Of a DNA stretch of 64,000 nucleotides, positions 11,724-36,618 are shown one piece after another (the stretch's first letter is position 1; each line of letters starts with the position of its first letter). The translations under genes and the position numbers were made by a program. The notes below the pieces were generated by a model, which made no database searches, was not told the DNA's origin, and was given only the letters and a program-made list of their open reading frames with translations. The DNA comes from Leisingera aquimarina DSM 24565. GTDB lineage: Bacteria; Pseudomonadota; Alphaproteobacteria; Rhodobacterales; Rhodobacteraceae. The stretch covers positions 3,556 through 67,555 of the forward strand of contig NZ_KI421506.1 in assembly GCF_000473165.1 (NCBI RefSeq), in the 5' to 3' direction.

Positions 11724-13028
11724 TTATGCCGCCGGTTTCATCGGCTGGCCGGCCGCATAGGTCTGGGCGATGGAGCGGTCATCCCCCAAAGTCTGCAGGA
11801 TGAACAATTCCTCCGACAGGGTCTCGGCCCGCTGCATCCGCAGATCCATCGCCGGAGTGGCGCGGGAGTCCAGCACCACGATATCGGCTTCGGTCCCGGC
11901 CTCCAACGTGCCGATCTTGTCCTCCAGCCCTAGCGCCACGGCGTTGCCGCGGGTGATCCAGTGGAAGGCGCGCAACGGGTGCAGCTTTTGGTTCTGCAAT
12001 TGCAGGACCTTGTAGCCCTCGTTCAGGGTCTGCAGCATCGAATAGCTGGTGCCGGCGCCGATGTCGGTGGCAATGGCATTGGTGATGCCGCGGCCGCGCA
12101 GGCCAGCGTCGTCAAACAGCCCGCTGCCCAGGAACAGGTTGGAGGTCGGGCAGAACACCGGCTTGGCCTGGGTCTCTGCCAGCGCATCAATCTCGCGCGG
12201 CTTCAGGTGGATCGAATGGCCGAGCAGCATTTTTTCGGTCAGCAGCCCGTAGGACTGATAGACATCCAGATAGTCGCGCGCCTGCGGATAGAGCTCGGCG
12301 GTAAAGGCGATTTCGTCGTGGTTTTCAGACAGGTGGGTTTGGACGTAGCAGTCCGGATGCTCCAGCACCAGTGCACCGGCCATTTCCATCTGTTCCGGGG
12401 TCGAGGTGATGGCAAAGCGCGGGGTGACCGCATACATGCCGCGGCCCTTGCCGTGGTATTTTTCGATCAGCGCCTTGGTATCGTCATAGCCGCTGACAGG
12501 CGTGTCCAACAGGCCCGCCGGCGCGTTGCGGTCCATCAGGACCTTACCGCCGATCATCCGCATGTTGCGGCGCGCAGCCTCGTCGAAATAGGCCTCGGCC
12601 GAGGTTTTGTGGACCGAGCAATAGGCCACCGCGGTGGTGGTGCCATGCGAAGTCAGCAGGTCGAAGAAGTGGCCCGCCATCTTAGTGCTGTGGCCAGCAT
12701 CGGCAAAACGGGTTTCCTCGGGGAAAGTGTAGTTGTTCAGCCACTCCAAGAGCTGCGAACCCCAGGAGGCGATCACCTGCACCTGCGGGAAATGCAGATG
12801 GGTGTCGATGAAGCCGGCCATCAGGATGTTCGGACGGTGGTCGATCACCTCGGCCCCGGCGGCCAGCTCGGCGAGACCGCCATAGCTGCCCTTGGCCAGG
12901 ATCTTGCCGTCCGCCACCAGCAGCGCACCGTCCTCGATGAACTCATAGGCGCTGGTGTCCTCGGGGCCTTGCGGCTCGGCGGTGAAGGAAAGCACCCGTC
13001 CGCGCAGCAGCGTCTGTTTCGATGTCAT
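11724..13028 (-). CDS. guaD: Guanine deaminase
   Basis: GuaD hydrolyses guanine to xanthine and ammonia, feeding the xanthine dehydrogenase encoded upstream. The 434-residue amidohydrolase shows the zinc ligands of GFIDTHLHFPQ, the HLSENHDEI motif, LLGHSIHL and the late aspartate in ATDIGAGTS. The ATG at 13028 (protein MTSKQTLLRG) is chosen because family length fits and AAGGA lies upstream; the longer frame start is unsupported. It is the last gene of the leftward operon xdhA-xdhB-xdhC-permease-guaD. Confidence 0.93.
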   Translation of the reverse strand: MTSKQTLLRGRVLSFTAEPQGPEDTSAYEFIEDGALLVADGKILAKGSYGGLAELAAGAEVIDHRPNILMAGFIDTHLHFPQVQVIASWGSQLLEWLNNYTFPEETRFADAGHSTKMAGHFFDLLTSHGTTTAVAYCSVHKTSAEAYFDEAARRNMRMIGGKVLMDRNAPAGLLDTPVSGYDDTKALIEKYHGKGRGMYAVTPRFAITSTPEQMEMAGALVLEHPDCYVQTHLSENHDEIAFTAELYPQARDYLDVYQSYGLLTEKMLLGHSIHLKPREIDALAETQAKPVFCPTSNLFLGSGLFDDAGLRGRGITNAIATDIGAGTSYSMLQTLNEGYKVLQLQNQKLHPLRAFHWITRGNAVALGLEDKIGTLEAGTEADIVVLDSRATPAMDLRMQRAETLSEELFILQTLGDDRSIAQTYAAGQPMKPAA

Positions 13029-13091
13029 GTCTTTGATGTCCTTGGTTCGCAGGCAGGGCGCGCGAGGCCCCCTGCCTCTTGTCATTTGGGA

Positions 13092-14687
13092 TTATTCGCC
13101 TGCCGGCAGATGCGGCACATGGGGCTTGGCAGGATCGTCTTCGGTTTCCTCATGCTCATCCGCCTTGTGGAAGATCGGGTAGATGAACAGGAAACCGGCC
13201 GCGATCAGGTAACCCATTGCGACACCGGTGAACTCCGGCCAATGCAGGCTGGCAGAATGGATCACGCCGACCAGCGACATTGCCGCCGCCGCCAGGGCAA
13301 AACCGCCCGCGTTGCGGAAGTCGCCGTCGATCACGCTGGCCACGATGGCGCCCCAGATCAGGCCGGTCAGGATCGCACCCTGGCTGAGGGCCAGATGACC
13401 TTCGTAATGCGCGCCCTGCTGCAGCAGCGCTGCGGTCAGCTCCGCATCGCCCAGCTGCGCCATGCCGGTCGCACCCAATGCGCCCAAAGCTCCGGCCAAT
13501 GCGCCCCATTTCACCACCAGGAAGGCAGAGACATGCGGCATCATCGCGATGGTGACAGCGGCGATATGGTCGGTCTTCACCGAATGCGCAGTGTTGGTCA
13601 CCAGGCTGAGCGCCACAAACACCAGAACCGGCGCGGCAGCCGCCACGGGGATCAGGTTGTTGAGGAACGCGAGAAGGCCAAAGAAGGCGGCAAAGGGGAT
13701 CACCAGGCCAACGCCGATGATATAGCCCGAGCGCGCGCCCATGCGTTTATAGGCCGGATGGCCGATATAGGCGGTGGTCGGGAACGGCGAGCCGAACACG
13801 GCGCCGATCATGGTGCCGACGCCGTCGGTCACCTGGCACAGGCCGACCGGGTAATGGTCACCCGCGGCTTCGGCGCTTTCGACGTTGTTCATGGTCTCGA
13901 TGAAGTTGTAGATCTGCACCGGCACCAGCACCAGGAACAGCTCCGGGTTGGCAAACAGATGCTGGATACCGGCAATCAGGTCACCGAAATAGGGGACCGG
14001 CAGGTAAACGCCCACACCCTCGAACGAGACCGAAGCCTTGCCCATGCCAAGCGCCACAACGGTGCCCACAATCAGCGCCAGCAGACCGGCGGGGATGTTG
14101 AACGGCAACCGGTGACGGCCCACCAGGCCCCACAGGATGATGATCATCGAGGCAAAACCGATGAACGGATCCTCGAATATCGTCGCCAGCGGCACGGTGC
14201 CGATGAACACCAGCGCAATGCCGCACAGCGTGCCCAGCATACCGGCACGCGGTGTCACCCGCTTCAGCCAGGGGCCGACGATGGCACCAAGGCCAGCGAC
14301 GATACCGCCCATGAAGCCCGCGCCAATGCCCACCTGCCAGGCCAGCATCGCGTCATTGGTCGACCAGTAGATCGGCCCGATCACCCCGAACAGGTAAACA
14401 AACATCACCGGGGTCGAGATGCCATAAGGCAGCGCGGTCACGTCGCGCCCTTCTTTCTCGGCGGTATGTTTGGCCAGCCAGGTGTAAACCGCGACACCTG
14501 CCAGGATCGCCACTGCGGCGCCGGGCACGATGCGGCCGAACACGATGTCCGCCGGCATGTTGAAGACAAACTGACAGATGCCGGATAGCACGATCAGGTT
14601 GATCAGGTTGTCCGTGAATAGCGCCCAGAATGCACTGAAGTCATTCCGCGCGAACAGTTTGTACGTATAGCTCCGCCCTGTGGTCAT
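13092..14687 (-). CDS. NCS2/AzgA-like purine permease
   Basis: A 531-residue, strongly hydrophobic protein with about 12 to 14 membrane segments. It has NCS2/AzgA-like sequence such as LPYGISTPVMFVYLFG and GSPFPTTAYIGHPAYKRMG, placing it among xanthine/uracil/purine permeases. It lies between xdhC and guaD in the same operon, so guanine, hypoxanthine or xanthine are likely substrates. It belongs to a different subgroup from the second NCS2 permease at 25506. The charged C-terminal tail is cytoplasmic. Substrate specificity is inferred. Confidence 0.88.
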   Translation of the reverse strand: MTTGRSYTYKLFARNDFSAFWALFTDNLINLIVLSGICQFVFNMPADIVFGRIVPGAAVAILAGVAVYTWLAKHTAEKEGRDVTALPYGISTPVMFVYLFGVIGPIYWSTNDAMLAWQVGIGAGFMGGIVAGLGAIVGPWLKRVTPRAGMLGTLCGIALVFIGTVPLATIFEDPFIGFASMIIILWGLVGRHRLPFNIPAGLLALIVGTVVALGMGKASVSFEGVGVYLPVPYFGDLIAGIQHLFANPELFLVLVPVQIYNFIETMNNVESAEAAGDHYPVGLCQVTDGVGTMIGAVFGSPFPTTAYIGHPAYKRMGARSGYIIGVGLVIPFAAFFGLLAFLNNLIPVAAAAPVLVFVALSLVTNTAHSVKTDHIAAVTIAMMPHVSAFLVVKWGALAGALGALGATGMAQLGDAELTAALLQQGAHYEGHLALSQGAILTGLIWGAIVASVIDGDFRNAGGFALAAAAMSLVGVIHSASLHWPEFTGVAMGYLIAAGFLFIYPIFHKADEHEETEDDPAKPHVPHLPAGE

Positions 14688-14718: not shown

Positions 14719-15612
14719 TTAACGGCTGAATACCCCAGCCGTTTCTCCCTCTGCGTCCGGTTGCTTGCCCGTATCAGGCAGGTCAATGCTCCGTGCTGGA
14801 GCGGACGCGGCAGTTTCAGAGGTCAAATCAGCGATCACTTCCGCAGCCACGAAGGCCGCGATGACACTGGGCCGCTTGTCGCGGCTGCCGCCTGCCCCGA
14901 TGGGGCAGATGAGACGGTCGGTTCGCTGACCGTCGCAATGGTCCCGGCACCAGCGGCGGAATTTCTCCCGCTTGGTGGCCGATCCGATCAGGCCCACGTA
15001 TCCTGCATCGCCGCGCTGCAGGGCAGCGGAGGCAAGCAGGAAGTCGAGCGCATGATCATGGGTGAGAACGATAAACGCGCTGCCCGCCGGGGCGATGGCA
15101 ATGTCGATCTCGGGAATGGCACTTTGGCGGATTTCCACATCCGCATGGCATAAGGCTAATTCTTCGGCGCGCTGGTCAATCAGGATGCAGCGCACCGGCA
15201 GGTGCTGGAACAGATCCGCCAGAGCCCGGCCGACATGGCCTGCACCCAGGACATAGATATGCGGCAGCGCCTGTTCCTCCGTCTGTTCTTTGGCAATCGC
15301 ATCCTCACGGTCGGCCTGACGCATCTGCGCCAGCGACATCTCCACCCGTCCGCCGCAGCACTGGCCGATCTCTGGCCCCAGCGGCACGTCCAGCGTGTCG
15401 CTGATGACATGGCTCTTCAGCATCCGCCGGGCGTGGTCGATGGCAATGTATTCCAGCTGGCCGCCGCCAATGGTTCCCCATGAGGATTCCGTCGCCACAA
15501 ACATGCAGGCGCCGGCCTCGCGCGGCGAGGATCCCCGCACGCGGGTCAGCGCGACCTGCACCACATGTTTGTGGCTGGCCAGAAAGGTCTGGAGAGAGGG
15601 GCGGCGGGCCAT
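14719..15612 (-). CDS. xdhC: Xanthine dehydrogenase accessory protein (molybdenum cofactor insertion)
   Basis: XdhC binds molybdenum cofactor, promotes its sulfuration and passes it to the XdhB subunit. The 297-residue protein has the N-terminal XdhC domain (about 1-100, with RGSSPREAGACMFV and GTIGGGQLE) and a C-terminal Rossmann region (YVLGAGHVGRALADLF). It follows xdhB by three bases, so it is coupled. The C-terminus ends in a low-complexity tail with no recognisable function. Confidence 0.93.
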   Translation of the reverse strand: MARRPSLQTFLASHKHVVQVALTRVRGSSPREAGACMFVATESSWGTIGGGQLEYIAIDHARRMLKSHVISDTLDVPLGPEIGQCCGGRVEMSLAQMRQADREDAIAKEQTEEQALPHIYVLGAGHVGRALADLFQHLPVRCILIDQRAEELALCHADVEIRQSAIPEIDIAIAPAGSAFIVLTHDHALDFLLASAALQRGDAGYVGLIGSATKREKFRRWCRDHCDGQRTDRLICPIGAGGSRDKRPSVIAAFVAAEVIADLTSETAASAPARSIDLPDTGKQPDAEGETAGVFSR

Positions 15613-20667: not shown

Positions 20668-21927
20668 TCAGTTCGCGGCCAGTGCGAAGGGCTGCTCCTT
20701 GGAGGCGCTGCCGTACCAGCGGCGGATCAGGGCGCGCTCCTCGTCCTCCATGTAGGTCACGTTGGCGGGCGGCATCGCGTGGGTGGCACCAGCCTGGAGA
20801 TAGATCTCCTTGGCGTATTTCGCCACATCGGCCGGGGTCTCCAGCAGCACGTTCTTGGGCGCGCGGCGGATGCCGTCATAGTAGGGCTCCCGCGCGTGGC
20901 ACATGGCGCAGCGGCCCGGCACCACATTCATCACGTCCTCGAAATGCTGGTTGCTGGCAAACACTTGCTCGGATTTGGTCAGCTCCCGTGCCTCGGATTC
21001 TTCATAGGTGTCCTGCTGCAGCGGCGCCTGGCTCAGGATCATGATGCCGATGAACAGGATGGCGGTCACAGGCCAGGTCCAGGTCGGGTTGCTGGTGCCC
21101 GCGTGGTTGCTGTTGAAGTAGTGGCGGATGGTCACGCCCATCAGGAACACCAGCGCCGCGATCAGCCAGTTGTACTCAGTGGCAAAGGCCAGCGGGTAGT
21201 GGTTGGACAGCATCAGGAACACAACCGGCAGCGTCAGGTAGTTATTGTGGGTCGAGCGCAGCTTGGCGATCTTGCCGTATTTGGCATCCGGCGTCCGGCC
21301 TTCCTGCAGGTCCTTCACCACGATGCGCTGGTTCGGCATGATGATGAAAAAAACGTTTGCAGTCATGATGGTAGCCGTGAAGGCGCCCAGGTGCAGCATC
21401 ACCGCGCGGCCGGTGAAGATCTGGTTGTAACCCCAGCCCATGGCGACCAGCAGCACAAACAGCAGCACCATCAGGAAGGTCGGCTTCTCCCCCAGCGGCG
21501 ATTTGCACAGGAAGTCATAGATGATCCATCCGATGGTCAGCGACGCGCCGGAAATCAGGATGCCTTGCCACAGGGCCAGGTCGGCCTTGCTGGAATCGAT
21601 CAGGTATAGCTCCCCGCCCGCCCAGTAGACGATCATCAACAGGCCCGCGCCTGACAGCCAGGTCGCGTAGCTTTCCCATTTGAACCAGATCAGATGCTCA
21701 GGCATATTTTCCGGCGCCACCAGATATTTCTGGATGTGGTAAAAACCGCCGCCATGGACCTGCCATTCCTCGCCATGCGCGCCGACCGGCAGATGCGGAA
21801 CCTTCCGCAAGCCAAGGTCGAGCGCGACGAAGTAGAAGGACGATCCGATCCAGGCAATGGCGGTGATGACGTGAAGCCAGCGGACCGCAAAGCCCAGCCA
21901 GTCCCACATGATCACAAGCTCTTCCAT
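20668..21927 (-). CDS. puuD: Urate hydroxylase with C-terminal cytochrome c domain
   Basis: PuuD is the membrane urate oxidase that converts urate to 5-hydroxyisourate, passing electrons to the respiratory chain instead of making peroxide. The 419-residue protein starts with about eight membrane segments (for example FAVRWLHVITAIAWIGSSFY) and ends in a periplasmic cytochrome c domain with the haem motif CAMCH and the downstream MPP region. It lies between two related LysR genes and near uraH and puuE-uraD, which carry out the next steps. Confidence 0.93.
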   Translation of the reverse strand: MEELVIMWDWLGFAVRWLHVITAIAWIGSSFYFVALDLGLRKVPHLPVGAHGEEWQVHGGGFYHIQKYLVAPENMPEHLIWFKWESYATWLSGAGLLMIVYWAGGELYLIDSSKADLALWQGILISGASLTIGWIIYDFLCKSPLGEKPTFLMVLLFVLLVAMGWGYNQIFTGRAVMLHLGAFTATIMTANVFFIIMPNQRIVVKDLQEGRTPDAKYGKIAKLRSTHNNYLTLPVVFLMLSNHYPLAFATEYNWLIAALVFLMGVTIRHYFNSNHAGTSNPTWTWPVTAILFIGIMILSQAPLQQDTYEESEARELTKSEQVFASNQHFEDVMNVVPGRCAMCHAREPYYDGIRRAPKNVLLETPADVAKYAKEIYLQAGATHAMPPANVTYMEDEERALIRRWYGSASKEQPFALAAN

Positions 21928-22031: not shown

Positions 22032-22940
22032 ATGGCCTATCTCGACAACATCCGTACCTTCGTCCGTGTCTACGAACTTGGCAACATGTCCGCCGCGGCC
22101 CGGGATATGCGGATTTCGGCAGCCGTGGCGTCCTCGCGGATTTCGCAGCTGGAGGATCATCTGAACGTGCGGCTGTTCCAGCGCACCACGCGGCTGCTCA
22201 ATCCGACTGAGCAGGGCAACCTGTTTTATCACGGCGCGGTCAAGATCCTGGAGGCCGTGGATGAGGCCGAGGCTGACATCAGCAGCGTCACCCAAACTCC
22301 GCGCGGCACCCTGTATGTGGCGGCTCCATTAGGGTTGGGGCAGCGGTTGATTGCGCCGGCAGTGCCGAAGTTCAACGAGGCCTATCCGCTGATCTCGATC
22401 CGCCTGCGGCTGTCGGACCGAAAGCTGGATCTGGCGGCCGAGGGGCTGGATGCAGCGTTTTTCCTCGGAGTGCCGGAGGATTCGAACCTGCGGATCCGCA
22501 AGATTGCCGATTGTGCGCGGGTGCTGTGTGCCTCACCGGATTATATCAGACGCCGCGGCCAGCCTGCCAGCAGCGACGAGTTGAAGACAGAGGCGCACGA
22601 CTGCCTGAACCTGCGCTACCCCGGCGCGCCGGAGTTCCAATGGCCGCTGCGCAGCCAGGACGGGGTTAAGCGGGTGACTGTCACCGGGCCGTTTGAATCC
22701 GATCACGGCGACGTGCTGACCAACTGGGCGCTGGAGGGGCATGGGATCATCCTGAAACCGGTTTTCGAGATTTCAGAACACCTTGCCTCGGGCCGGCTGG
22801 TGCCAGTGCTGGCAGAGGAGCCGCCGATCCCGATTCAGATGGCCTGTCTCTATGTCCACCGCCGCCACCAGGACCCCAAGGTGCGGCTGTTCATGGATTT
22901 CATAGTAGACCACATCCAGGCATCCCTCCCCTCAGAATGA
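22032..22940 (+). CDS. LysR-family regulator beside puuD
   Basis: A 302-residue LysR protein with an N-terminal helix-turn-helix (AARDMRISAAVASSRISQLE) and substrate-binding domain. It is divergent from puuD with about 100 bases between starts and converges on uraH, so control of urate oxidation is the likely role. It is a diverged relative of the LysR protein at 19616. Effector unknown. Confidence 0.9.
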   Translation: MAYLDNIRTFVRVYELGNMSAAARDMRISAAVASSRISQLEDHLNVRLFQRTTRLLNPTEQGNLFYHGAVKILEAVDEAEADISSVTQTPRGTLYVAAPLGLGQRLIAPAVPKFNEAYPLISIRLRLSDRKLDLAAEGLDAAFFLGVPEDSNLRIRKIADCARVLCASPDYIRRRGQPASSDELKTEAHDCLNLRYPGAPEFQWPLRSQDGVKRVTVTGPFESDHGDVLTNWALEGHGIILKPVFEISEHLASGRLVPVLAEEPPIPIQMACLYVHRRHQDPKVRLFMDFIVDHIQASLPSE

Positions 22941-23019: not shown

Positions 23020-23376
23020 TCAGCTGCCGCGGTAGGTGGAATAGCCGTAGGGCGACAGCAGCAGCGGCACGTGATAGTGGCTGTCAGCCTCGCTTATGCC
23101 AAAACGCAGCGGCACTTCGTCCAGAAACAGCGGGTCCGCGCCCGCCTGGCCAGTGTTGTGCAGATAGCCGCCGGCGTGGAACACCAGCTCATAGGTGCCG
23201 GTTGCGAATTCACCTGCAGGCAGGATCTGCTCATCGGTGCGCCCGTCGTCATTGGTGGTCAGGCTGCGCAGGTGGATGCGTTCGTTGCCTTCGATCCGGT
23301 AAAGGTCGATCTTCAGCCCTTCCGCCGGGCAGCCGCGGGCAGTGTCCAGCACATGGGTGGTCAGAAATCCGGTCAT
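23020..23376 (-). CDS. uraH: 5-hydroxyisourate hydrolase (transthyretin-like)
   Basis: UraH hydrolyses 5-hydroxyisourate from PuuD to OHCU. The 118-residue protein has the N-terminal [11 protein letters not shown] signature and ends in the YRGS tetrapeptide diagnostic of this family. The ATG at 23376 is chosen over one 12 bases upstream because GGAGG lies five bases before it. It is divergent from the puuE-uraD fusion gene. Confidence 0.95.
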
Positions 23377-23455
23377 GCCAGCCTCCATTCAATTCTGTTG
23401 ACTTAAAGTATGCGCTGTTCAGCCCAGTGCATACAGAAGGAAGAGTCAAAAAGTT

Positions 23456-23526: not shown

Positions 23527-24942
23527 GTGACGCGCTATCCCCGTGACTTGCGCGGATACGGTGCTGCCGCACCCGACCCGCAGTGGCCCAATGGGGCCAA
23601 AGCCGCCGTGCAATTCGTGCTCAACTATGAAGAAGGCGGCGAGAACTGCATCCTGCATGGGGATGCGGCCTCCGAGGCCTTTCTGTCCGACATTCCCGGC
23701 GCCGTGCAATGGCCCGGCCAGCGCCATTGGAACATGGAGTCGGTCTATGAATACGGGTCGCGGGCCGGCTTCTGGCGGCTGCACCGGCTGTTCACCGGCG
23801 CCGGCATTCCGCTGACCATCTACGGCGTCGCCACCGCGCTGGCCCGCTCGCCCGAGCAGGTGCAGGCGATGAAGGACGCGGACTGGGAAATCGCCAGCCA
23901 CGGGTTGAAGTGGGTCGAGCACAAGGACATGACAGAGGAGGAGGAGCGCGCCGCCATTGCCGAAGCTGTGCGTCTTCATACCGAAGTTACCGGCGACCGC
24001 CCGCGCGGCTGGTACACGGGGCGCTGCAGCGCCAACACCGTACGGCTGGTGGCTGAGGAAGGCGGATTTAATTATATCTCAGACACTTACGACGACGACC
24101 TGCCCTATTGGCTGGAAACCGGCGGGCGTGATCAGTTGATCATTCCCTACACGCTGGAAGCCAACGACATGCGCTTCGCCAATTCGCCGGGCTGGATCAC
24201 GGGTGAGCATTTCTTTCAGTACTTGAAGGATGCTTTTGACGTGATCTACGCCGAAGGCGAAGCCGGTGCTGCGAAGATGATAACCATCGGGCTGCACTGC
24301 CGTCTGGTGGGCCGTCCGGGCAAGATCGCGGGCCTGAAGCGCTTTATTGAGTATATCCAGGGTTTCGAGGATGTCTGGTGCCCGCGCCGCATCGACATTG
24401 CCGAACATTGGGCCGCAACCCATGCGCCCGAAAAGCACCTGCGCCTCAGCCGGATGGACCGCGCGGCCTTTGTGTCCAGCTATGGCTCGATCTTCGAGCA
24501 CTCGCCTTGGATCGCCGACCGCGCCTTTGATCTGGAGCTGGGTCCGGCGCATGACTGTGCCGCCGGTGTTCACAACGCGCTGTGCCGTATCTTCCGCTCC
24601 GCCAGTGAAGAAGAGCGCCTGGGCGTGCTGACCGCGCACCCTGATCTGGCAGGCAAGCTGGCCGCCGCCGGGCGCCTGACCGCTGAGAGCACCTCGGAAC
24701 AGTCCAGTGCCGGGCTGGACATGCTGACCGACGAGGAGCGCGAGACCTTCACCCGGCTCAACACCGAGTATGTGGAGAAGCACGGGTTCCCCTTCATCAT
24801 CGCAGTGCGCGACCACAACAAGGCGTCGATCATGGAGGCCTTCAACCGCCGGATCACCAACGACCGGGCGACTGAGTTCGACGAGGCCTGCCGCCAGGTC
24901 GAGCGCATTGCCCAGTTCCGGCTGCAGGATCTGCTGCCATGA
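23527..24942 (+). CDS. puuE: Fused allantoinase (PuuE) and OHCU decarboxylase (UraD)
   Basis: One 471-residue chain carries two enzymes. Residues 1 to about 305 are a metal-independent allantoinase of the polysaccharide deacetylase fold (SHGLKWVEHKDM, GWYTGRCSANTVRL, SDTYDDDLPYW). Residues from about 310 are OHCU decarboxylase, with the catalytic His of TAHPDLAGK, the STSEQ motif and FPFIIAV. The two steps are consecutive but in reverse order along the chain: UraD makes allantoin, then PuuE opens it to allantoate. The start is a GTG with AGGAG upstream. It overlaps allA by four bases. Confidence 0.94.
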   Translation: MTRYPRDLRGYGAAAPDPQWPNGAKAAVQFVLNYEEGGENCILHGDAASEAFLSDIPGAVQWPGQRHWNMESVYEYGSRAGFWRLHRLFTGAGIPLTIYGVATALARSPEQVQAMKDADWEIASHGLKWVEHKDMTEEEERAAIAEAVRLHTEVTGDRPRGWYTGRCSANTVRLVAEEGGFNYISDTYDDDLPYWLETGGRDQLIIPYTLEANDMRFANSPGWITGEHFFQYLKDAFDVIYAEGEAGAAKMITIGLHCRLVGRPGKIAGLKRFIEYIQGFEDVWCPRRIDIAEHWAATHAPEKHLRLSRMDRAAFVSSYGSIFEHSPWIADRAFDLELGPAHDCAAGVHNALCRIFRSASEEERLGVLTAHPDLAGKLAAAGRLTAESTSEQSSAGLDMLTDEERETFTRLNTEYVEKHGFPFIIAVRDHNKASIMEAFNRRITNDRATEFDEACRQVERIAQFRLQDLLP

Positions 24943-25430
24943 GCCGGCTGCTGACCGCCGTGCCGCTGACCGCCGAAGCCTTTGCGCCCTATGGCGATGT
25001 GATCGAGGTCGCAGGTGCGCCGGACAAGCTGATCAATCAGGGCATGTGCGGCCGTCACCACGACCGCGCCCGCCTCGATTTCGGCGAGGACGGGGGGGCG
25101 GGCATCAGCCTGTTCGACGCCCGGGCCCGCCACCTGCCGCACAAGGTGGACATGGTGGAACGCCATCCTGACGGCAGCCAGGCCTTTGTGCCGGTCAGCG
25201 GCGTGCCGATGCTGGTTGTTGTCGCAGAAGACGCAGGCGGTGTCCCGGTTGAGTTGAAAGCCTTCATCAGCCAGCCCGGCCAGTCCATCAACCTGCACCG
25301 CGGCACCTGGCACGGGGTACTCGCCCCGCTGGGCGCGCCCGGGCAATACATCGTGGTTGACCGTATCGGCACCACGCCGAACCTTGAAGAACATTGGTTC
25401 AAGGAGCCTTTCACAGTGGTCTCAGACTGA
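24939..25430 (+). CDS. allA: Ureidoglycolate lyase
   Basis: AllA splits ureidoglycolate into glyoxylate and urea, the last ureide step. The 163-residue cupin-like protein has the family pattern VIEVAGAPDKLINQGMC near the start and INLHRGTWHGVLAPL in the core. It is coupled to puuE-uraD by an ATGA overlap and followed by a permease gene. Its product glyoxylate is the substrate of the nearby beta-hydroxyaspartate cycle. Confidence 0.93.
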   Translation: MSRLLTAVPLTAEAFAPYGDVIEVAGAPDKLINQGMCGRHHDRARLDFGEDGGAGISLFDARARHLPHKVDMVERHPDGSQAFVPVSGVPMLVVVAEDAGGVPVELKAFISQPGQSINLHRGTWHGVLAPLGAPGQYIVVDRIGTTPNLEEHWFKEPFTVVSD

Positions 25431-25505
25431 CCGCAACACTCTGAAGCCGCTCGAAAAATAGCAAGAAGCGGCGAGATCCCCATGACCGACAGGAGAAACG
25501 ACCTC

Positions 25506-26942
25506 ATGGCTGACACTTCCATTGGGTCGCCGGCACAGCTGCGCGATCCCAACTACACCCCGCCCTTGCACAAGGCGATCCCGCTGGGCATCCAGCATGT
25601 GCTGGCGATGTTCGTCTCGAACGTGACACCCGCGATCATTGTTGCCGGCGCCGCCGGGTTCGGCTTCGGCTCCAACTCGCCGGATTTCCCGGAGCTGCTG
25701 TATCTGATCCAGATGTCGATGCTGTTTGCCGGTATTGCGACGCTGCTGCAGACCATCACCCTGGGGCCGGTCGGCTCTGCCTTGCCGATCGTGCAGGGCA
25801 CCTCCTTTGCCTTCCTGCCGATCATGATCCCGCTGGTTGCGGGCAAGGGAGTGGACGGGCTGGCCGCGCTGTTCACCGGCGTCATCGTGGGCGGCATCTT
25901 CCACGGTCTGCTCGGCACGGTGATCGGCCGGATCCGCTTTGCCCTGCCGCCGCTGGTCACCGGTCTGGTGGTGACGATGATCGGCCTGGCGCTGGTCAAG
26001 GTCGGCATCCAATATGCCGCGGGCGGTGTTCCAGCCATCGGCACGCCGGAATACGGCTCGCTGCTGAACTGGTCGGCGGCGCTGGTGGTAATCCTGGTGA
26101 CCCTGGGCCTCAAGTTCTTCACCAAGGGGATGCTCTCGGTCTCTGCCGTGCTGCTGGGTCTGATCGTGGGTTATGTCTATGCGCTGATGACCGGCATGCT
26201 GACCTTCGAGGCGATTTCCGGCTCCTGGTCCGGGGCCTCCGCCTTTGCTCTGCCGCAGCCGTTCAAATACGGCTTCGAGTTCTCCGCCGCCGCCATCATC
26301 GGCTTCTGCCTGATGAGCTTTGTCTCTGCGGTTGAAACCGTCGGTGACGTTTCCGGTGTGACCAAGGGCGGCGCAGGCCGCGAGGCGACCGAGGAGGAAA
26401 TTGCAGGCGCGACCTACGCCGATGGTATGGGCACCGCTTTTGCCGGCTTCTTTGGCGCCTTCCCCAACACCTCCTTCAGCCAGAACGTCGGCTTGATCGC
26501 GATGACCGGGGTGATGAGCCGCCATGTTGTGACCTGCGGTGCCATCTTCCTGATCGTCTGCGGCCTGGTGCCCAAAGTGGGCGCGGTGATCCGCACCGTG
26601 CCGATCGAGGTGCTGGGCGGCGGTGTGATCGTGATGTTCGGCATGGTGGTTGCGGCTGGTGTGTCGATGCTGTCGGACGTGGACTGGAACCGCCGCAACA
26701 TGGTGATCTTTGCGATCTCCCTGTCCATCGGCCTTGGCTTGCAGCTGGAACCCGGCGCACTGCAGCACATGCCGGACACCGCGCGCATCCTGCTGACCAG
26801 CGGCCTGCTGCCGGCGGCGCTGATTGCCATCGTTCTGAACCTGCTGCTGCCGCAGGAACTGACGGGTGAGGCGACTGAGGAAGTCTCCGGCGGGCTAAGC
26901 GGCCACGGCCGCGGGTCGTTGCCGCATGAGGACCGCGCCTGA
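25506..26942 (+). CDS. NCS2-family uracil/xanthine/urate permease
   Basis: A 478-residue membrane protein with the NCS2 hallmarks: LGIQHVLAMFVSNVTPAIIV near the N-terminus, the QGTSFAFLP segment and the NTSFSQNVG motif, with about 14 membrane segments. It ends the rightward operon puuE-uraD, allA, permease, so xanthine or urate uptake is likely. The ATG at 25506 has AGGAG about ten bases upstream; an ATG at 25482 has none. A strong terminator follows. Confidence 0.92.
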   Translation: MADTSIGSPAQLRDPNYTPPLHKAIPLGIQHVLAMFVSNVTPAIIVAGAAGFGFGSNSPDFPELLYLIQMSMLFAGIATLLQTITLGPVGSALPIVQGTSFAFLPIMIPLVAGKGVDGLAALFTGVIVGGIFHGLLGTVIGRIRFALPPLVTGLVVTMIGLALVKVGIQYAAGGVPAIGTPEYGSLLNWSAALVVILVTLGLKFFTKGMLSVSAVLLGLIVGYVYALMTGMLTFEAISGSWSGASAFALPQPFKYGFEFSAAAIIGFCLMSFVSAVETVGDVSGVTKGGAGREATEEEIAGATYADGMGTAFAGFFGAFPNTSFSQNVGLIAMTGVMSRHVVTCGAIFLIVCGLVPKVGAVIRTVPIEVLGGGVIVMFGMVVAAGVSMLSDVDWNRRNMVIFAISLSIGLGLQLEPGALQHMPDTARILLTSGLLPAALIAIVLNLLLPQELTGEATEEVSGGLSGHGRGSLPHEDRA

Positions 26943-27005: not shown

Positions 27006-27518
27006 TCAGCCAGTCAGCCCGTGTAAAACCACCAGACCGGGCAGCCAGCCGGTGAAGATCCCGCACAACAGAGTTGCCATGGCGGTCAGCCGGGGGTTTC
27101 CGCGCCTGAGCGCGAGGTTCAGAAAATACAGGAACCAGAGCCCGGACCAGGCGGCCCAGCAGGCGGCCAGCCAGACATCGAATAACCCCTCCGCCTGCGC
27201 CAGCACCCGCAACGCCATGGGCGCCGCGGTCAGCGCCACAAACCCGTTGAACCAGCCCAGACCCTCGCCGCTGGAGGAAACCGCGCGGTTGTAGGCAACC
27301 CACAGATAGGTGGTACCGAACAGCAGGGTCATGCCCGCATCCAACAGGTCTGCCGGCTGCCGGGCATCAAGGGCAATCAGCAGAATGATGGCAAAGAACA
27401 CCAGAGCCGCGACCGCATTGATCAGAATGATTTCCCGGTCCTGGATCCGGCCGGCTTGCCAGACGCCGTTCAGGCACAGCACCACGCCGACCACCAGCAG
27501 GCTCAATCCCAGAAACAT
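27006..27518 (-). CDS. AmiS/UreI-family urea or short-amide channel
   Basis: A 170-residue protein with six predicted membrane segments. Its sequence follows the Helicobacter UreI pattern: LFGTTYLWVAYNR, WFNGFVALTAAPMAL, WAAWSGLWFLYFLN and IFTGWLPGLVVL line up in order with UreI segments. UreI/AmiS proteins let urea or short amides cross the inner membrane. Here urea would come from AllA and the allantoate step, so export or uptake of urea is inferred. It lies downstream of bhcD beyond a terminator and probably has its own promoter. Confidence 0.8.
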   Translation of the reverse strand: MFLGLSLLVVGVVLCLNGVWQAGRIQDREIILINAVAALVFFAIILLIALDARQPADLLDAGMTLLFGTTYLWVAYNRAVSSSGEGLGWFNGFVALTAAPMALRVLAQAEGLFDVWLAACWAAWSGLWFLYFLNLALRRGNPRLTAMATLLCGIFTGWLPGLVVLHGLTG

Positions 27519-27614: not shown

Positions 27615-28580
27615 TTAGAAATCGACCTCGATAGCGATGCCTTTTTCAACCGCCACATCAACTACGGAGGCCGCGACGGCCAGATCCTGCAGGCCGACGC
27701 CGGTGCCGTCGAACAAGGTGATCTGGTCGTCCGAGGTGCGGCCCGGGTTGATGCCGTTGATGACCGCGCCAATTTGGGCCACGTCGCCCTTCTGGATCAG
27801 GCCCTGCGCAATTGCATGCTGCGCCTCGCCGATGGAGACCGACTGGGCGACCTCATCAGTGAACACGTCTGCTGCGACCAGCAACTGCGGATCGACTTCC
27901 TGCTTGCCTTTGGTATCGGTACCCATGCAGGCGACGTGCGTGCCGGGGCTGACCTGATCCGCCTTCAGGATCGCATCAAAGGACGAGGTAATCGAGATGA
28001 TCACATCCGCTTCGCGCATACCGTCCAGTTCAACCGCTTCAAAGGGCAGCCCAGCTTCATCTGCCACCTCCTGCAGGTTCGGCAGCATCTCGGGGTGCAG
28101 GTTCCAGCCGATCACTTTTTCGAAGCTGCGTTGCTCCAAGGCGGCCCGCAGCTGGAACTTGGCCTGATGGCCGGCGCCGATCATGCCGATCACCTTGGCG
28201 TCCTGGCGGGCCAGGTGCTTGATCGACACCGAGGACGCCGCTGCCGTGCGCAGCGCGGTCAGCAGGTTGCCGCCAACCATTGCCTTCACCTTGCCGGTGT
28301 CGGGGTCGAACAGGAAGACGGTGGACTGGTGATTGATCAGCCCGCGCTTTTCCAGGTTGTTCGGCCAGTAGCCGCCGGCCTTCAGCCCAAGGGTCAGGCC
28401 TGCGCGGTCAAAGCCGCCCTTGAAGCCGTAAAGCGCATCTTCATGGCCGATCGCCTCGCGCACGACGGGGAAGTTGTAAGCATCGCCTGCGGCCATCGCG
28501 GCAAAGACCTTCTCGACCGCGTCGAACGAGGCTTCGCGGGTCACCAGGTCCGCAATCGCCTTTTCCGGAACGATATACAT
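27615..28580 (-). CDS. bhcD: Iminosuccinate reductase of the beta-hydroxyaspartate cycle
   Basis: BhcD reduces iminosuccinate to aspartate, closing the cycle that turns two glyoxylate into oxaloacetate. The 321-residue protein is in the ornithine cyclodeaminase/mu-crystallin family, with a Rossmann motif MIGAGHQAKFQL and the substrate region GGNLLTALRTAAASS. The assignment relies on the exact bhcA-bhcB-bhcC-bhcD order known from Paracoccus denitrificans. A terminator-like hairpin lies between bhcC and this gene. Confidence 0.92.
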   Translation of the reverse strand: MYIVPEKAIADLVTREASFDAVEKVFAAMAAGDAYNFPVVREAIGHEDALYGFKGGFDRAGLTLGLKAGGYWPNNLEKRGLINHQSTVFLFDPDTGKVKAMVGGNLLTALRTAAASSVSIKHLARQDAKVIGMIGAGHQAKFQLRAALEQRSFEKVIGWNLHPEMLPNLQEVADEAGLPFEAVELDGMREADVIISITSSFDAILKADQVSPGTHVACMGTDTKGKQEVDPQLLVAADVFTDEVAQSVSIGEAQHAIAQGLIQKGDVAQIGAVINGINPGRTSDDQITLFDGTGVGLQDLAVAASVVDVAVEKGIAIEVDF

Positions 28581-32069: not shown

Positions 32070-32187
32070 AATCCAAACAGAACGGTTAATTACTTTAAAA
32101 ATAATGGTTTGTGTTTTTTCACTGTACAGAAGTGATTTTCAGTTTTATTCATAAGCTGCTGCTTGAATTGCCTTGGAAGACCTAAAA

Positions 32188-33021
32188 ATGCCCCAACCAC
32201 CACGCCGGAAAGGCCGCCCCAAGAGCTTTGATTCCGCCAGCCAGCCAGCCACGATCCAATCGCTGGACCGGGCGCTGGATGTATTGGACGCGCTGGCCGC
32301 TGCCAACGGCATGACGCTGACGGAATTGTCCTCTGCATTGGGTCAGTCGGCCGCCACCATGTACCGGGTGCTATCGACACTGGAGGTTCGCCAGATCGTC
32401 GAAGTGGAGCCGCAAAGCCAGACTTGGCACATCGGCGCGATGGCGTTCCGTCTCGGCTCTGCCTTCCTGCGCCGCTCCAGCGTGATCGAAAGGGCGCGGC
32501 CGGTGATGCGGGAGCTGATGGAGGCCACTGGCGAGACCTCCAACCTCGGCATCGAACGCGGCGGCGACGTGATGTTCGTAAGCCAGGTGGAAACCCATGA
32601 ATCGATCCGCGCCTTTTTCCCGCCCGGCACCACTTCACCGATGCACGCTTCGGGCATCGGCAAGGCGCTGCTCAGCTGTTTCGGAGAGGATCAGTTGACC
32701 CGTTTCCTGCGGGGGCAGGCACTGGAACGGTTCACGGAAAAAACCCTGACCTCCGCGGAAGCCCTGCGCGCTGATTTGGCGCAGATCCGAAGCCGCGGCT
32801 GGTCGTTCGACGATGAAGAAAAAGCACCGGGGATGCGCTGTGTTGCCGCCCCAGTTTTTGGCATGCAGGGTGAGGTGCTGGCAGGGATTTCCATCTCCGG
32901 CCCCACCGCCCGGATGCCGGACGGCGGCATCAACGGCATCGGCGCCCTGGTGAAGGACGCCGCAGAAAAACTTTCGTATGGATTGGGCGCGCCCGCAGCT
33001 GTGGAAACTCCGCCCGGCTGA
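32188..33021 (+). CDS. bhcR: IclR-family regulator of the beta-hydroxyaspartate cycle
   Basis: BhcR controls bhcABCD in response to glyoxylate in Paracoccus. This 277-residue protein has the IclR winged helix (about 22-80, SLDRALDVLDALAAANGMTL then SAATMYRVLSTLEV) and a C-terminal effector domain with HASGIGKALLS and the GMRCVAAPVF motif. The ATG at 32188 follows GGAAG; a TTG at 32173 is in frame but less likely. It is divergent from bhcA. Confidence 0.92.
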   Translation: MPQPPRRKGRPKSFDSASQPATIQSLDRALDVLDALAAANGMTLTELSSALGQSAATMYRVLSTLEVRQIVEVEPQSQTWHIGAMAFRLGSAFLRRSSVIERARPVMRELMEATGETSNLGIERGGDVMFVSQVETHESIRAFFPPGTTSPMHASGIGKALLSCFGEDQLTRFLRGQALERFTEKTLTSAEALRADLAQIRSRGWSFDDEEKAPGMRCVAAPVFGMQGEVLAGISISGPTARMPDGGINGIGALVKDAAEKLSYGLGAPAAVETPPG

Positions 33022-33072
33022 ACAGTCGGGAAGCGTCCGGGCACATATTCGGGCCGGGCGCTCCCCCGCCGC

Positions 33073-33903: not shown

Positions 33904-33975
33904 GGGCTGCCTTTCCTGCTGAACTGCTGCCACTTTGATAACTGCCTGGGCCACGCAACCGAACTTAATTCCGTA

Positions 33976-33989
33976 TCAAGAATGCTTGA
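33976..33989. promoter_or_regulatory. TCAAG-N4-CTTGA inverted repeat upstream of allE
   Basis: TCAAG and CTTGA flank AATG about 73 bases upstream of the allE start. It is a small symmetric site in the gap between modC and allE and a candidate operator. Confidence 0.3.
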
Positions 33990-34025
33990 AGGATTGTTTT
34001 GGTATTTTTGAAGACGCGGGCTGCC

Positions 34026-35111
34026 CTATCCGCCCCCGCCGATATCCTCTGGCGCGATGGACACGGTCTTGACCACAGCAAAGCACTCCACTCCCGCCTC
34101 CAGCCCCAAGGCCTGGGCAGAACGCCGGGTGACCCGGGCCAGCACCCGCCCGGCGGGCGTTTGCAGCGAGACCATGGCCCCCGGACCGCCGCCAGTGCGG
34201 ACATGCTCAATCGTGCCGGGCAGAATGTTGAGCGCCGAGAGACCTTCGGGAGGCTGGCGTGACAGGATCACCTCATGCGCCGAGATCCTGACCCGCACCA
34301 CACTGCCCACAGCTTTTGCGATCTGCGGCAGGAACAGCAGTACACCGCCCGCGTCGAGTTCTGTCAGCCCGTCGTTGTGATGACTGGCAACACGTGCCTC
34401 CAGCAGCGCCCCGGCGGCCCGAACCCCTGCGGGCATGACGGCAGTGTCGCCCAGCACCTCCGCCGCGGTTCCTTGCCGCTGCACCTTGCCGTCCTGCAGC
34501 ACCACAACCGTGGTGGCCAGCCGTGCCACCTCCGCTGCAGAGTGGCTGACATAAAGCATCGGAATGCCGATCTCGTCGCGCAACCGCTCAAAATAGGGCA
34601 GGATTTCCGCCTTGCGCGCCTCATCCAAAGCTGACAGCGGCTCATCCGCCAGGATCATCCGCGGCGCCGACAGCAGCGCCCGGCCAAGTGCCACCCGCTG
34701 CTTCTCGCCGCCTGACAGCAGACCCGGCCGCCGTTGCAGCAGAGGGCCAATGCCCAGCAGCTCCACAACCCGGTCCAGGCTCTCTCGCTTGGCATCCCTC
34801 GGCGCGAACCATTGCCCGAACGCCAAGTTCTGCCGCACCGTCAGATGCGGGAACAGCCGGCCCTCCTGAAACACATAGCCCATGCGGCGCTTGTGCGGCG
34901 GCAGCCAGTGCCGCTGGGTGGTGTCAAACAGCAACTCACTGTCCAGTGCCACCCGCCCCTGATCCGGGCGCAACAGGCCGGCCACCGCCTGTATCACTGT
35001 TGTCTTGCCGGTTCCGGAACGGCCAAACAGCACGGTGACGCCTGGTGGCGCCTCGAATTGCACATCCAGCCCGAACCCCGGCAGCGCATGCCGCAGCGAG
35101 ACAGTCAGCAT
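34026..35111 (-). CDS. modC: Molybdate ABC transporter, ATP-binding protein
   Basis: ModC powers molybdate import. The 361-residue protein has Walker A GRSGTGKTT, signature LSGGEKQRVALGRAL, Walker B MILADEPLSALDEA and a C-terminal TOBE/Mop molybdate-binding region (from about 285). Its start overlaps the modB stop. Molybdate is needed for xanthine dehydrogenase encoded about 15 kb away, which makes the location sensible. Confidence 0.93.
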   Translation of the reverse strand: MLTVSLRHALPGFGLDVQFEAPPGVTVLFGRSGTGKTTVIQAVAGLLRPDQGRVALDSELLFDTTQRHWLPPHKRRMGYVFQEGRLFPHLTVRQNLAFGQWFAPRDAKRESLDRVVELLGIGPLLQRRPGLLSGGEKQRVALGRALLSAPRMILADEPLSALDEARKAEILPYFERLRDEIGIPMLYVSHSAAEVARLATTVVVLQDGKVQRQGTAAEVLGDTAVMPAGVRAAGALLEARVASHHNDGLTELDAGGVLLFLPQIAKAVGSVVRVRISAHEVILSRQPPEGLSALNILPGTIEHVRTGGGPGAMVSLQTPAGRVLARVTRRSAQALGLEAGVECFAVVKTVSIAPEDIGGGG

Positions 35112-35815
35112 CAGCGCCCCCCAGCCCGGTCAGCAACCCTGCGCGCCAGCAGTTCTGACAGCAGCAGCGCAATCAATGCGATGGCAATCGACACCAGCGT
35201 CAGCCGCAGCGCAGCGCTTTCACCGCCCGGCACCTGCAGGAAAGTGTAAATCGCCGACGGCAGGGTCTGCGTCTGTCCCGGAATGCTTGAAACAAAGGTG
35301 ATTGTGGCCCCGAATTCCCCCATCGCCTTGGCAAACCCCAGTACTGTGCCGGCAATCAGGCCAGGCAGGATCATCGGCAAGGTAACGGTGGCAAAACATA
35401 ACGCCCGAGATGCACCCAGCGTCGCGGCAGCTTGTTCCAGCTTGGGGTCCACCGCCTCAACCGACAAGCGGATCGCCCGCACCATCAGCGGAAAGGCCAT
35501 GATACCCGCGGCCAGCGCTGCCCCGGTCCAGCGGAAGGCAAAAACAATACCGATCTGCTGCAGCGCACCTCCGACCGGTCCCTTGGTGCCGAATACCATC
35601 AAAAGCAGATAGCCGGTCACGACCGGCGGCAGGATCAGCGGCAGATGCACCAGGCTGTTCAGGAGCTGCTTGCCGGGAAACTGCCAGCGCGCCAGCGCAT
35701 AGGCGACAAACACCGCCAGTGGCAGCGCGGCCAGTGTTGCCCACAACGAGACCCGCAGTGACAGCATCACTGCCTGCCACTCCTCGGGACCCAGCCATGC
35801 AGCCTCAGCGTTCAC
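35111..35815 (-). CDS. modB: Molybdate ABC transporter, permease
   Basis: A 234-residue permease with five to six membrane segments. PLILPPVVTGYLLL and the EAA-loop region EQAAATLGASRALCFATVTLP are typical of ModB. It overlaps modA at its start and modC at its stop by a few bases, so the three genes are tightly coupled. Confidence 0.93.
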   Translation of the reverse strand: MNAEAAWLGPEEWQAVMLSLRVSLWATLAALPLAVFVAYALARWQFPGKQLLNSLVHLPLILPPVVTGYLLLMVFGTKGPVGGALQQIGIVFAFRWTGAALAAGIMAFPLMVRAIRLSVEAVDPKLEQAAATLGASRALCFATVTLPMILPGLIAGTVLGFAKAMGEFGATITFVSSIPGQTQTLPSAIYTFLQVPGGESAALRLTLVSIAIALIALLLSELLARRVADRAGGR

Positions 35816-36618
35816 GGGTCAGACACTCCGAACCCGTGGCGCAGAAAAATGCCGCGGGCCACCGGGCTGCGTAAGTAGTTTAAGAAGGTCTGGGCCTCAG
35901 CCGCATTGCCGCTTGAGATTGCCGCGGCGGGGTAGATGACCGGAGGATGGCTGTCCTGCGGAAACACCGCAACCACTGTGACATTGCTGCCTGCGGCTGC
36001 GTCCGTGGCATAGACCACGCCCATTGGCGCTTCGCCCGATGCGACCAGCACCAGGGCGGCGCGCACATTGGCGGCCTGGGCGGTTTTGGACGCAACGGAG
36101 GGCCATTGCCCCAACGCGGCCAGCGCGGCTTTGCCATAGATCCCGGCCGGCACCGCATCGACCAGCGCCATGGCAAGCCGACTTTCCCCCAGCAGCGCGC
36201 CCAGGTCGGCGGTCTCCAGATCCAGCGGCGCGGCACCTGCTCCATGTGCGATGAGAACCAGCCGGTTTGTCAGAAGATCCAACCGTGAGGCAGGAACAAT
36301 CAGCCTGTCTTGCTGCAAAACATCCATCCAGCCGGGATTGGCTGAAATGAAAACATCCGCCGGGGCGCCAAGCTGAATCTGCCGTGCCAAAGCCGGTGAA
36401 CCCGCGTAGGACAACACGGCGGCCCGGCCGGTTTCAGCCATGTAGGCAGCAGCGGCCTCATCCAGTGCCGTTTTGGTGCTGGCAGCCGCGAAGACGGTGA
36501 TCTGCGCCTGCACCATGGATGCCAAGCCCAAAAGCAAGGCAACAGGCATCAAAAGGCCCCGCCAGGCTCCAAGCGGAACCAGGAATGTCAAAACTGCAGC
36601 CTGGATTGTCGTCATCAC
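35812..36618 (-). CDS. modA: Molybdate ABC transporter, periplasmic binding protein
   Basis: ModA captures molybdate in the periplasm. The mature part starts ITVFAAASTKTALDEAAAAY, the usual ModA beginning, and contains SYAGSPALARQIQLGAPADVFISA. The start is uncertain: 36618 gives 268 residues with a long leader, while an ATG at 36549 gives a standard 16-residue signal peptide ending in VQA. No Mo-responsive operator was recognised upstream. Confidence 0.92.
   Translation of the reverse strand: MMTTIQAAVLTFLVPLGAWRGLLMPVALLLGLASMVQAQITVFAAASTKTALDEAAAAYMAETGRAAVLSYAGSPALARQIQLGAPADVFISANPGWMDVLQQDRLIVPASRLDLLTNRLVLIAHGAGAAPLDLETADLGALLGESRLAMALVDAVPAGIYGKAALAALGQWPSVASKTAQAANVRAALVLVASGEAPMGVVYATDAAAGSNVTVVAVFPQDSHPPVIYPAAAISSGNAAEAQTFLNYLRSPVARGIFLRHGFGVSDP

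What the first reader, a model, noticed from the sequence alone, without database searches (positions are those of the whole stretch)
11724..36618. One locus from guanine to glyoxylate to central metabolism
Guanine deaminase, xanthine dehydrogenase, urate hydroxylase, UraH, UraD-PuuE, AllE and AllA lie together with the complete bhcRABCD cycle. AllA makes glyoxylate and BhcA uses glyoxylate, and the cycle needs aspartate and glycine as amino carriers. Molybdate uptake for xanthine dehydrogenase and a urea channel are in the same stretch. The beta-hydroxyaspartate cycle is best known for glycolate use; here its position implies that purines could feed it as carbon and nitrogen sources.
Basis: partly seen in the sequence, partly recalled or inferred. 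Interest (0 to 1): 0.8.

Follow-up and report, generated by a model that had tools for sequence, protein, structure and literature searches.

The report
Purine breakdown joined to glyoxylate use
In many marine and soil Alphaproteobacteria the genes that break purines down to glyoxylate sit in or beside the genes that turn glyoxylate into a building block for growth, which suggests that these bacteria can eat the carbon of purines and not only their nitrogen.

Summary
guaD, xdhABC, puuD, uraH, puuE-uraD, allA, allE, bhcRABCD, ureI and modABC are all there. The genus is very probably Leisingera and the contig probably a plasmid.

In 100 bhcC loci, one per genus, allA lies within about 10 kb in 33; about 0.6 is expected by chance. 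One of five core purine genes is there in 42. The genome's own glcD/glcE-like proteins found nothing in 120 loci. Linkage also shows in 5 of 6 Hyphomicrobiales loci. On the BhcC tree the label needs 31 changes.

Two architectures recur: bhc set between allA/pbuX and allE, and purine genes following bhcD on the same strand. A Paracoccus denitrificans replicon carries bhcABCD-pbuX-8-oxoguanine deaminase-uraH-puuD in a row.

Limits: modABC linkage was seen only in Leisingera, ureI lies behind a terminator, BhcR control of purine genes is not shown, and growth on purine carbon is inferred. Ten searches showed no earlier description, but the 2019 founding paper was not held.

The parts
11724..13085 (-). 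guaD, guanine deaminase (guanine to xanthine)
   Evidence: TIGR02967 548 bits, cut-off 375
13092..14687 (-). 531-aa multi-helix permease between guaD and xdhC; probable nucleobase transporter
   Evidence: No Pfam, NCBIfam or PDB-sequence match; RefSeq calls the L. methylohalidivorans copy xanthine/uracil/vitamin C permease
14719..15612 (-). xdhC, xanthine dehydrogenase maturation
   Evidence: TIGR02964 277 bits
15616..17934 (-). xdhB, molybdopterin subunit
   Evidence: TIGR02965 1324 bits
17947..19410 (-). xdhA, FeS/FAD subunit
   Evidence: TIGR02963 665 bits
19616..20533 (+). LysR regulator 1, divergent from xdhA
   Evidence: LysR matches below equivalog cut-offs
20668..21927 (-). puuD, membrane urate hydroxylase with cytochrome c motif
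   Evidence: PF06181 443 bits; CAMCH near the C-terminus
22032..22940 (+). LysR regulator 2, divergent from puuD
   Evidence: LysR matches below equivalog cut-offs
23020..23388 (-). uraH, hydroxyisourate hydrolase
   Evidence: TIGR02962 128 bits
23527..24942 (+). puuE-uraD fusion: allantoinase plus OHCU decarboxylase
   Evidence: TIGR03212 521 and TIGR03164 215 bits in one ORF
24939..25430 (+). allA, ureidoglycolate lyase (makes glyoxylate and urea)
   Evidence: NF002952 279 bits, cut-off 260
25482..26942 (+). pbuX-type NCS2 xanthine permease
   Evidence: TIGR03173 425 bits, cut-off 414
27006..27518 (-). AmiS/UreI-type urea/amide channel
   Evidence: PF02293 153 bits
27541..27570 (-). intrinsic terminator between bhcD and ureI
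   Evidence: 13-pair stem then T run; 76-nt stretch around it folds with z-score -5.06
27615..28580 (-). bhcD, iminosuccinate reductase
   Evidence: NF045643 592 bits
28651..29814 (-). bhcC, 3-hydroxyaspartate aldolase
   Evidence: NF045642 769 bits
29831..30799 (-). bhcB, beta-hydroxyaspartate dehydratase
   Evidence: NF045641 584 bits
30799..32019 (-). bhcA, aspartate-glyoxylate aminotransferase
   Evidence: NF045640 761 bits
32051..32069 (.). TTTGAAA-N5-TTTCAAA palindrome between bhcA and bhcR, candidate BhcR operator
   Evidence: 75 of 92 bhcA-bhcR gaps carry it with 3 or fewer mismatches, about 8% of shuffles do; the motif was read off these same gaps, so part of the excess is by construction
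32173..33021 (+). bhcR, IclR-family regulator of bhc
   Evidence: NF045644 418 bits
33073..33954 (-). allE, (S)-ureidoglycine aminohydrolase; model name adds allantoicase
   Evidence: TIGR03214 308, NF040771 508 bits; closest solved structure 1sq4, 473 bits
34026..35111 (-). modC
   Evidence: TIGR02142 403 bits
35111..35815 (-). modB
   Evidence: TIGR02141 218 bits
35812..36618 (-). modA
   Evidence: TIGR01256 171 bits

Best explanation
This is a probably plasmid-borne supercluster that takes purines from uptake to oxaloacetate. Guanine and xanthine are imported and oxidised to urate (GuaD, XdhABC), then to allantoate (PuuD, UraH, PuuE-UraD). Allantoate becomes ureidoglycolate through AllE, together with an allantoate-cleaving activity whose gene is not settled. 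AllA releases glyoxylate and urea. BhcA turns one glyoxylate into glycine at the expense of aspartate. BhcC joins glycine to a second glyoxylate. BhcB and BhcD regenerate aspartate, so two glyoxylates give one oxaloacetate without loss of CO2. BhcR, which responds to glyoxylate in Paracoccus denitrificans, switches bhc on when purine-derived glyoxylate builds up. Gene identities and recurring linkage are shown here. Flux, growth on purine carbon and regulation in this organism are inferred.
For: Enzymes of every step except a certain allantoate-cleaving one. Linkage in 33 of 100 genera for AllA, 34 of 100 for AllE, 42 of 100 for any of five core genes, against about 0.57 expected for AllA. The label linked/unlinked needs 31 changes on the BhcC tree, at least 10 forced by starred branches, and is no more clustered than shuffled labels (103 of 500 as low): not one frozen ancestral arrangement. 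Several architectures: the full bhc set between allA(+) and allE(-) in 18 of the 41 loci that hold AllA, AllE or PuuE; that junction lies closed in 6 of 20 AllA loci from genera without the cycle (L175-L177, L187, L190, L191). A purine gene starts within 1.2 kb after bhcD on the same strand in 15 of 182 loci, two of which were picked for it. In P. denitrificans HAMBI_2443 bhcA-B-C-D-pbuX-8-oxoguanine deaminase-uraH-puuD are on one strand, from a 1-bp overlap to about 45 bp apart up to uraH and about 200 bp before puuD (by tblastn). Linkage in 5 of 6 Hyphomicrobiales loci of at least 18 kb. No glyoxylate carboligase over cut-off in the genome, so of the two net assimilation routes named in PMC11323563 (passage) only this cycle was found. 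No glcD/glcE homologue in 120 bhc loci.
Against: 58 of 100 genera have bhc without any of the five core purine genes nearby, and so does Ruegeria pomeroyi DSS-3 by its annotation. In the window bhcDCBA is parted from the purine genes by opposite-strand genes or a terminator, and a BhcR-like site before puuE is weak: 4 of 30 family gaps with 3 or fewer mismatches where about 1 is expected. Two genera have only a bhcC-like gene in the slot and no BhcA over cut-off. A GlcD-like and GlcE-like pair exists on another contig of the same genome, so glycolate may also feed the cycle. The allantoate-cleaving step is not pinned down. Malate synthase, another glyoxylate user, was not searched for.
Confidence: 0.75

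Rival explanations
1. Purines serve as nitrogen sources only; the cycle beside them is a glyoxylate sink that prevents toxicity and recovers a little carbon, without supporting growth on purine carbon.
For: Purines carry more nitrogen than carbon relative to biomass (inference). The AllA family is common with or without the cycle: PF04115 in 272 of 295 genomes, BhcC over cut-off in 126 of 295.
Against: The cycle ends in oxaloacetate, an assimilatory product. The window genome has no urease and no urea carboxylase over cut-off, so nitrogen bound as urea would be lost, which fits carbon use better (inference; allophanate hydrolase was not searched).
Confidence: 0.3
2. Glycolate is the real substrate; bhc sits near purine genes because both are carried on plasmids and have stayed together by descent or hitch-hiking.
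For: Plasmid location in Leisingera; GlcD/GlcE-like genes elsewhere in the genome; the cycle is experimentally tied to glycolate (PMC11323563, passages).
Against: Hitch-hiking does not explain several architectures in different genera, the 31 label changes or same-strand runs with purine genes; no glcD/glcE homologue beside bhc in 120 loci.
Confidence: 0.15
3. Shared need for glyoxylate regulation: BhcR, a relative of AllR, also controls the purine genes, and linkage is a by-product of one regulon.
For: PMC11323563 places BhcR as sister to IclR and AllR (passage). One candidate site before puuE in 19 of 20 loci of the genus with 3 mismatches. In the window 8 matches with up to 3 mismatches against 0.77 expected, of which two (23445, 32051) lie in these two gaps.
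Against: The site is weak outside the genus, and loci of the genus share ancestry. The stricter 15-base core has no match before puuE with up to 1 mismatch.
Confidence: 0.2

Closest known systems
Beta-hydroxyaspartate cycle (bhcABCD with BhcR) of Paracoccus denitrificans
   Same: All four enzymes and the regulator over equivalog cut-offs, divergent bhcR.
   Different: In the passages read, the cycle is described with glycolate oxidase as the glyoxylate source and purines are mentioned only in general. Here it is embedded in a purine locus.
Escherichia coli allantoin regulon (allA, gcl, AllR)
   Same: AllA-derived glyoxylate is fed to an assimilation route under an IclR-family regulator (AllR at the gcl and allS-allA promoters: PMC11323563 passage; the rest recalled).
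   Different: The glycerate route through glyoxylate carboligase releases CO2 (same passage). Here it is replaced by the beta-hydroxyaspartate cycle, and no Gcl is over cut-off in the genome.
Ureide pathway of purine catabolism (xdh, puuD, uraH, uraD, puuE, allE, allA)
   Same: Same kind of gene set as in 20 AllA loci from genera without the cycle, where PuuE-UraD is found in 20, the AllA cluster in 18, AllE in 16, UraH in 15, PuuD in 11, PbuX in 9.
   Different: bhc is set into the allA/pbuX-allE junction.

Membership tests
Beta-hydroxyaspartate cycle | BhcA, BhcB, BhcC, BhcD each over equivalog cut-off, in one cluster | tested here: met
   761/650, 584/550, 769/690, 592/500 bits
Beta-hydroxyaspartate cycle | Divergent BhcR gene | tested here: met
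   NF045644 418 over 350 bits, divergent from bhcA
Beta-hydroxyaspartate cycle | BhcR operator in the bhcA-bhcR gap | tested here: inconclusive
   Palindrome in 75 of 92 gaps with 3 or fewer mismatches, read off the same gaps; binding not tested
Beta-hydroxyaspartate cycle | Needed for growth on glyoxylate | not testable with these tools
   Bench test
Ureide purine pathway, glyoxylate-releasing branch | Urate to allantoin: PuuD, UraH, UraD | tested here: met
Ureide purine pathway, glyoxylate-releasing branch | Allantoate-cleaving enzyme | tested here: inconclusive
   No PF03561 allantoicase but the control was silent; two NF006769 allantoate-amidohydrolase-subfamily proteins on contig C1, 539 and 692 bits over 452; AllE model name includes allantoicase
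Ureide purine pathway, glyoxylate-releasing branch | AllA ureidoglycolate lyase | tested here: met
   NF002952 279 over 260 bits
Single purine-BHAC operon | Same strand, short gaps | tested here: not met
   Not met in the window (opposed strands, terminator after bhcD). Met by position in P. denitrificans and P. ferrooxidans

The most novel reading that the evidence does not exclude
In much of Rhodobacterales and some Hyphomicrobiales the beta-hydroxyaspartate cycle has been selected as the carbon-recovering end of purine catabolism at least as much as for glycolate. Even in P. denitrificans the bhc transcript runs on into purine uptake, 8-oxoguanine deamination and urate breakdown, so that the glyoxylate sensor BhcR controls purine use.
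Probability: 0.35. Interest if true: 0.8.

Novelty: new variant of a known kind. Interest (0 to 1): 0.6.

Why it matters
In the papers read here the cycle is presented as a route for algal glycolate and for ethylene glycol (PMC11323563, PMC11166783, passages). If its genes are recurrently built into purine clusters and not beside glycolate oxidase, then nucleic-acid debris is a second carbon source for it, possibly an older one. Purine nitrogen and carbon budgets in the sea would have to be coupled. The idea is testable at once, because bhcABCD and bhcR deletion strains of P. denitrificans exist (PMC11323563, passages).

Tried and rejected
Slot hypothesis: that genera without the cycle carry another glyoxylate module between allA/pbuX and allE. 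Among the ORF clusters present in 3 or more of 20 such loci, those not purine genes or LysR were an ABC ATPase, a GAPDH and an acyl-CoA ligase. Rarer clusters were not classified and ORF choice was heuristic, so the idea has no support rather than being excluded.

ureI as last gene of the bhc operon: rejected as stated, because a strong terminator separates them and 5 of 20 loci of the genus lack ureI. ureI presence does not track urease absence: urease is over cut-off in G006, G011 and G016; ureI is missing in G003, G006, G012, G013 and G017.

BhcR operator before the purine genes: inconclusive.

Structure of the unassigned permease: AlphaFold2 mean pLDDT 45 from 8 sequences, too poor to use; no fold search was run.

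Allantoicase search gave nothing, but no control rang.
Full report
What is there. The stretch 11724-36618 holds an uptake-to-oxaloacetate gene set. On the minus strand lie guaD, a permease, xdhC, xdhB and xdhA; then a LysR gene (+), puuD (-), a second LysR gene (+), uraH (-), puuE-uraD, allA and pbuX (+), ureI and bhcDCBA (-), bhcR (+), allE and modCBA (-). Assignments rest on NCBIfam models above curated cut-offs and on Pfam for PuuD and UreI. The two LysR genes match only the general family.

Where it is. The window lies on contig C3 (125,793 bases) of an 8-contig, 5.34-Mb genome. In the plasmid collection 17 records hold at least 80% of window 20600-36700 in one place; all are Leisingera, 86-90% identical, on plasmids of 108-285 kb. 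Contigs of same-genus genomes equal named Leisingera records in length (G020:C4 and L. thetidis, 137,680; G001:C7 and L. aquaemixtae, 127,294). L. methylohalidivorans DSM 14336 has the same order on a 285-kb plasmid without ureI; Leisingera sp. M527 has puuD to modA with ureI. That the window itself is Leisingera and its contig a plasmid is inferred.

Is the linkage general? BhcC is over cut-off in 21 of 21 genus genomes and in 126 of 295 family genomes, about one per genus. I fetched about 20 kb around bhcC for 20 genus loci and for 100 of the 124 other family genomes; 13 of the 100 stretches are under 18 kb. In the 100: AllA 33, AllE 34, PuuE-UraD 31, UraH 31, PuuD 26, PbuX 24, GuaD 5, XdhB 3, XdhA 0, ModABC 0, UreI 0. 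Any of the five core genes AllA, AllE, PuuE-UraD, UraH, PuuD: 42; three or more: 31. AllA lies at a median of 4.1 kb. With the summed region length and a 3.9-Mb genome, 0.57 are expected; with a harsh 2.4 Mb and two copies, 1.6 (genome sizes and copy numbers are my settings). PF04115 (AllA family) is in 272 of 295 genomes, so presence alone does not explain nearness.

Is it one old event? On a quick BhcC tree of 103 rows the label linked/unlinked needs 31 changes (28 if AllA alone is the label). Starred branches force at least 10, and 103 of 500 shuffles are as low. The tree cannot tell gain from loss, and stretches cut by contig ends may be scored as unlinked. Of the 41 family loci with AllA, AllE or PuuE, 18 have the full bhc set between allA(+) and allE(-). 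Eight have allE alone on the bhcR side, six allA alone on the bhcD side, four allA and allE in tandem on the bhcD side, two have both on the bhcR side, two have a lone bhcC in the slot, and one is cut by a contig end. In 20 AllA loci from genera without the cycle, the purine genes are clustered, and in six allA or pbuX directly faces allE (L175, L176, L177, L187, L190, L191). So bhc looks inserted at that junction in one type of locus and joined otherwise elsewhere.

Second collection. A scan of named genomes gave 80 loci (the best 80 of a capped list, overlapping in part with the first set): AllA 26, AllE 27, GlcD 1, ModABC 1 (L. aquaemixtae), UreI 8 of 80. Six of the eight UreI hits are 50-53% identical and lie on the bhcD side in Litoreibacter, Aliiroseovarius, Puniceibacterium, Loktanella and Marivita, although the 100-genus set gave none. 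Of 64 loci of at least 18 kb, 35 hold a core purine gene; AllA, AllE or PuuE is in 25 of 56 Rhodobacterales, 5 of 6 Hyphomicrobiales and 0 of 2 Oceanospirillales.

Same-strand runs. In 15 of 182 loci a purine gene starts within 1.2 kb after bhcD on the same strand, among them Shimia, Litoreibacter, Aliiroseovarius and Paracoccus. The 182 are the 100 and 80 above plus two Paracoccus records taken because of the linkage. In P. ferrooxidans CP038202 and P. denitrificans HAMBI_2443 the run is bhcA-bhcB-bhcC-bhcD-pbuX-8-oxoguanine deaminase-uraH-puuD. About 45 bp separate bhcD and pbuX, pbuX and the deaminase overlap, and about 20 bp separate the deaminase and uraH. NCBIfam confirms BhcA-D, PbuX, 8-oxoguanine deaminase and UraH in P. 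ferrooxidans. The P. denitrificans record carries no annotation there, and its genes are read by tblastn only. The gene annotated cysteine desulfurase in P. ferrooxidans is 71% identical to the window's PuuD.

Contrast with glycolate. The window genome has a GlcD-like and GlcE-like pair on contig C1, both below cut-off (439 of 568 bits; 264 of 284). These two proteins find nothing at E up to 1e-3 in 120 bhc loci, while AllA finds 53 in the same run.

Pathway gaps and surplus. Glyoxylate carboligase: no match over cut-off in the genome; the best is acetolactate synthase. Malate synthase was not searched. Urease: none over cut-off in the window genome and 3 of 21 in the genus. Urea carboxylase: 0 of 21 over cut-off. 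Urea would then be excreted, perhaps through UreI (inference). The allantoate-cleaving enzyme is open: two NF006769 proteins on contig C1 or AllE itself. AllE's nearest solved relative is 1sq4, named Glyoxylate-induced Protein.

Regulation. The bhcA-bhcR gap holds TTTGAAA-N5-TTTCAAA, within 3 mismatches in 75 of 92 gaps against about 8% of shuffles. The motif came from these gaps, so the excess is partly by construction. The uraH-puuE gap gives 4 of 30 family loci where about 1 is expected. In P. denitrificans BhcR activates bhc in response to glyoxylate (PMC11323563, passages). Co-regulation in Leisingera is not shown.

Literature. Ten searches showed no paper on bhc-purine linkage in their listings. 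I opened five papers and saw passages only, with the abstract and outline of one. PMC11323563 mentions purines only as a possible glyoxylate source, and its main text has no hit for permease, uraH, guanine, uric or xanthine. PMC11166783 and PMC7574528 treat the cycle with ethylene glycol or glycolate. PMC10499878 has the term once, in a legend. PMC4016543 (abstract and passages) concerns another purine route. Other listed papers, such as PMC12599240 and PMC9947464, were not opened. The founding 2019 paper was not held, so priority is unsettled.

Noticed in passing
13092-14687 (-): 531-aa many-helix permease with no Pfam, NCBIfam or PDB-sequence match; ten of 80 named bhc loci hold a relative, 70-85% identical, in most of them with guaD.
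   Followed up: partly
L145 (G231), L150 (G045): A lone bhcC-like gene sits between pbuX and allE without BhcA over cut-off in the genome: a decayed cycle or a separate use of the aldolase.
   Followed up: partly
L273:7641-8888, L275:10645-11889: Protein annotated as cysteine desulfurase in P. ferrooxidans CP038202 is 71% identical to PuuD urate hydroxylase; the name is probably wrong.
   Followed up: yes
L055:7316-8308 and 28 of 100 family bhc loci: A glyceraldehyde-3-phosphate dehydrogenase relative (331 bits, below the type I cut-off of 367) recurs near bhc, perhaps for gluconeogenesis from oxaloacetate.
   Followed up: no
L067, L084, L093, L106, L116: Adenine deaminase lies near bhc in 5 of 100 family loci, none of them with AllA, AllE or PuuE in reach.
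   Followed up: no
L031 and L045 (G001:C7): Two bhc copies 108.7 kb apart on a 127-kb contig; this equals the length of L. aquaemixtae plasmids, so probably one circular plasmid assembled with overlapping ends.
   Followed up: partly
L266: BhcC 85% identical to the window's in a contig filed under the cyanobacterium Spirulina subsalsa; probably a contaminant.
   Followed up: no
37288-44020: Chemotaxis genes with a receptor bearing a weak dCache_1 match (38 bits, cut-off 45) directly beside the purine locus; a like cluster stands there in L. methylohalidivorans. It could sense purines.
   Followed up: no
46136-63989: Caspase-domain protein, Ser/Thr kinase and type VI secretion genes (IcmF/TssM, DotU/TssL, VasE/TssK, FHA, VgrG-like).
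   Followed up: no
19616-20533 and 22032-22940: Two LysR genes diverge from xdhA and puuD, a likely local purine control separate from BhcR.
   Followed up: no
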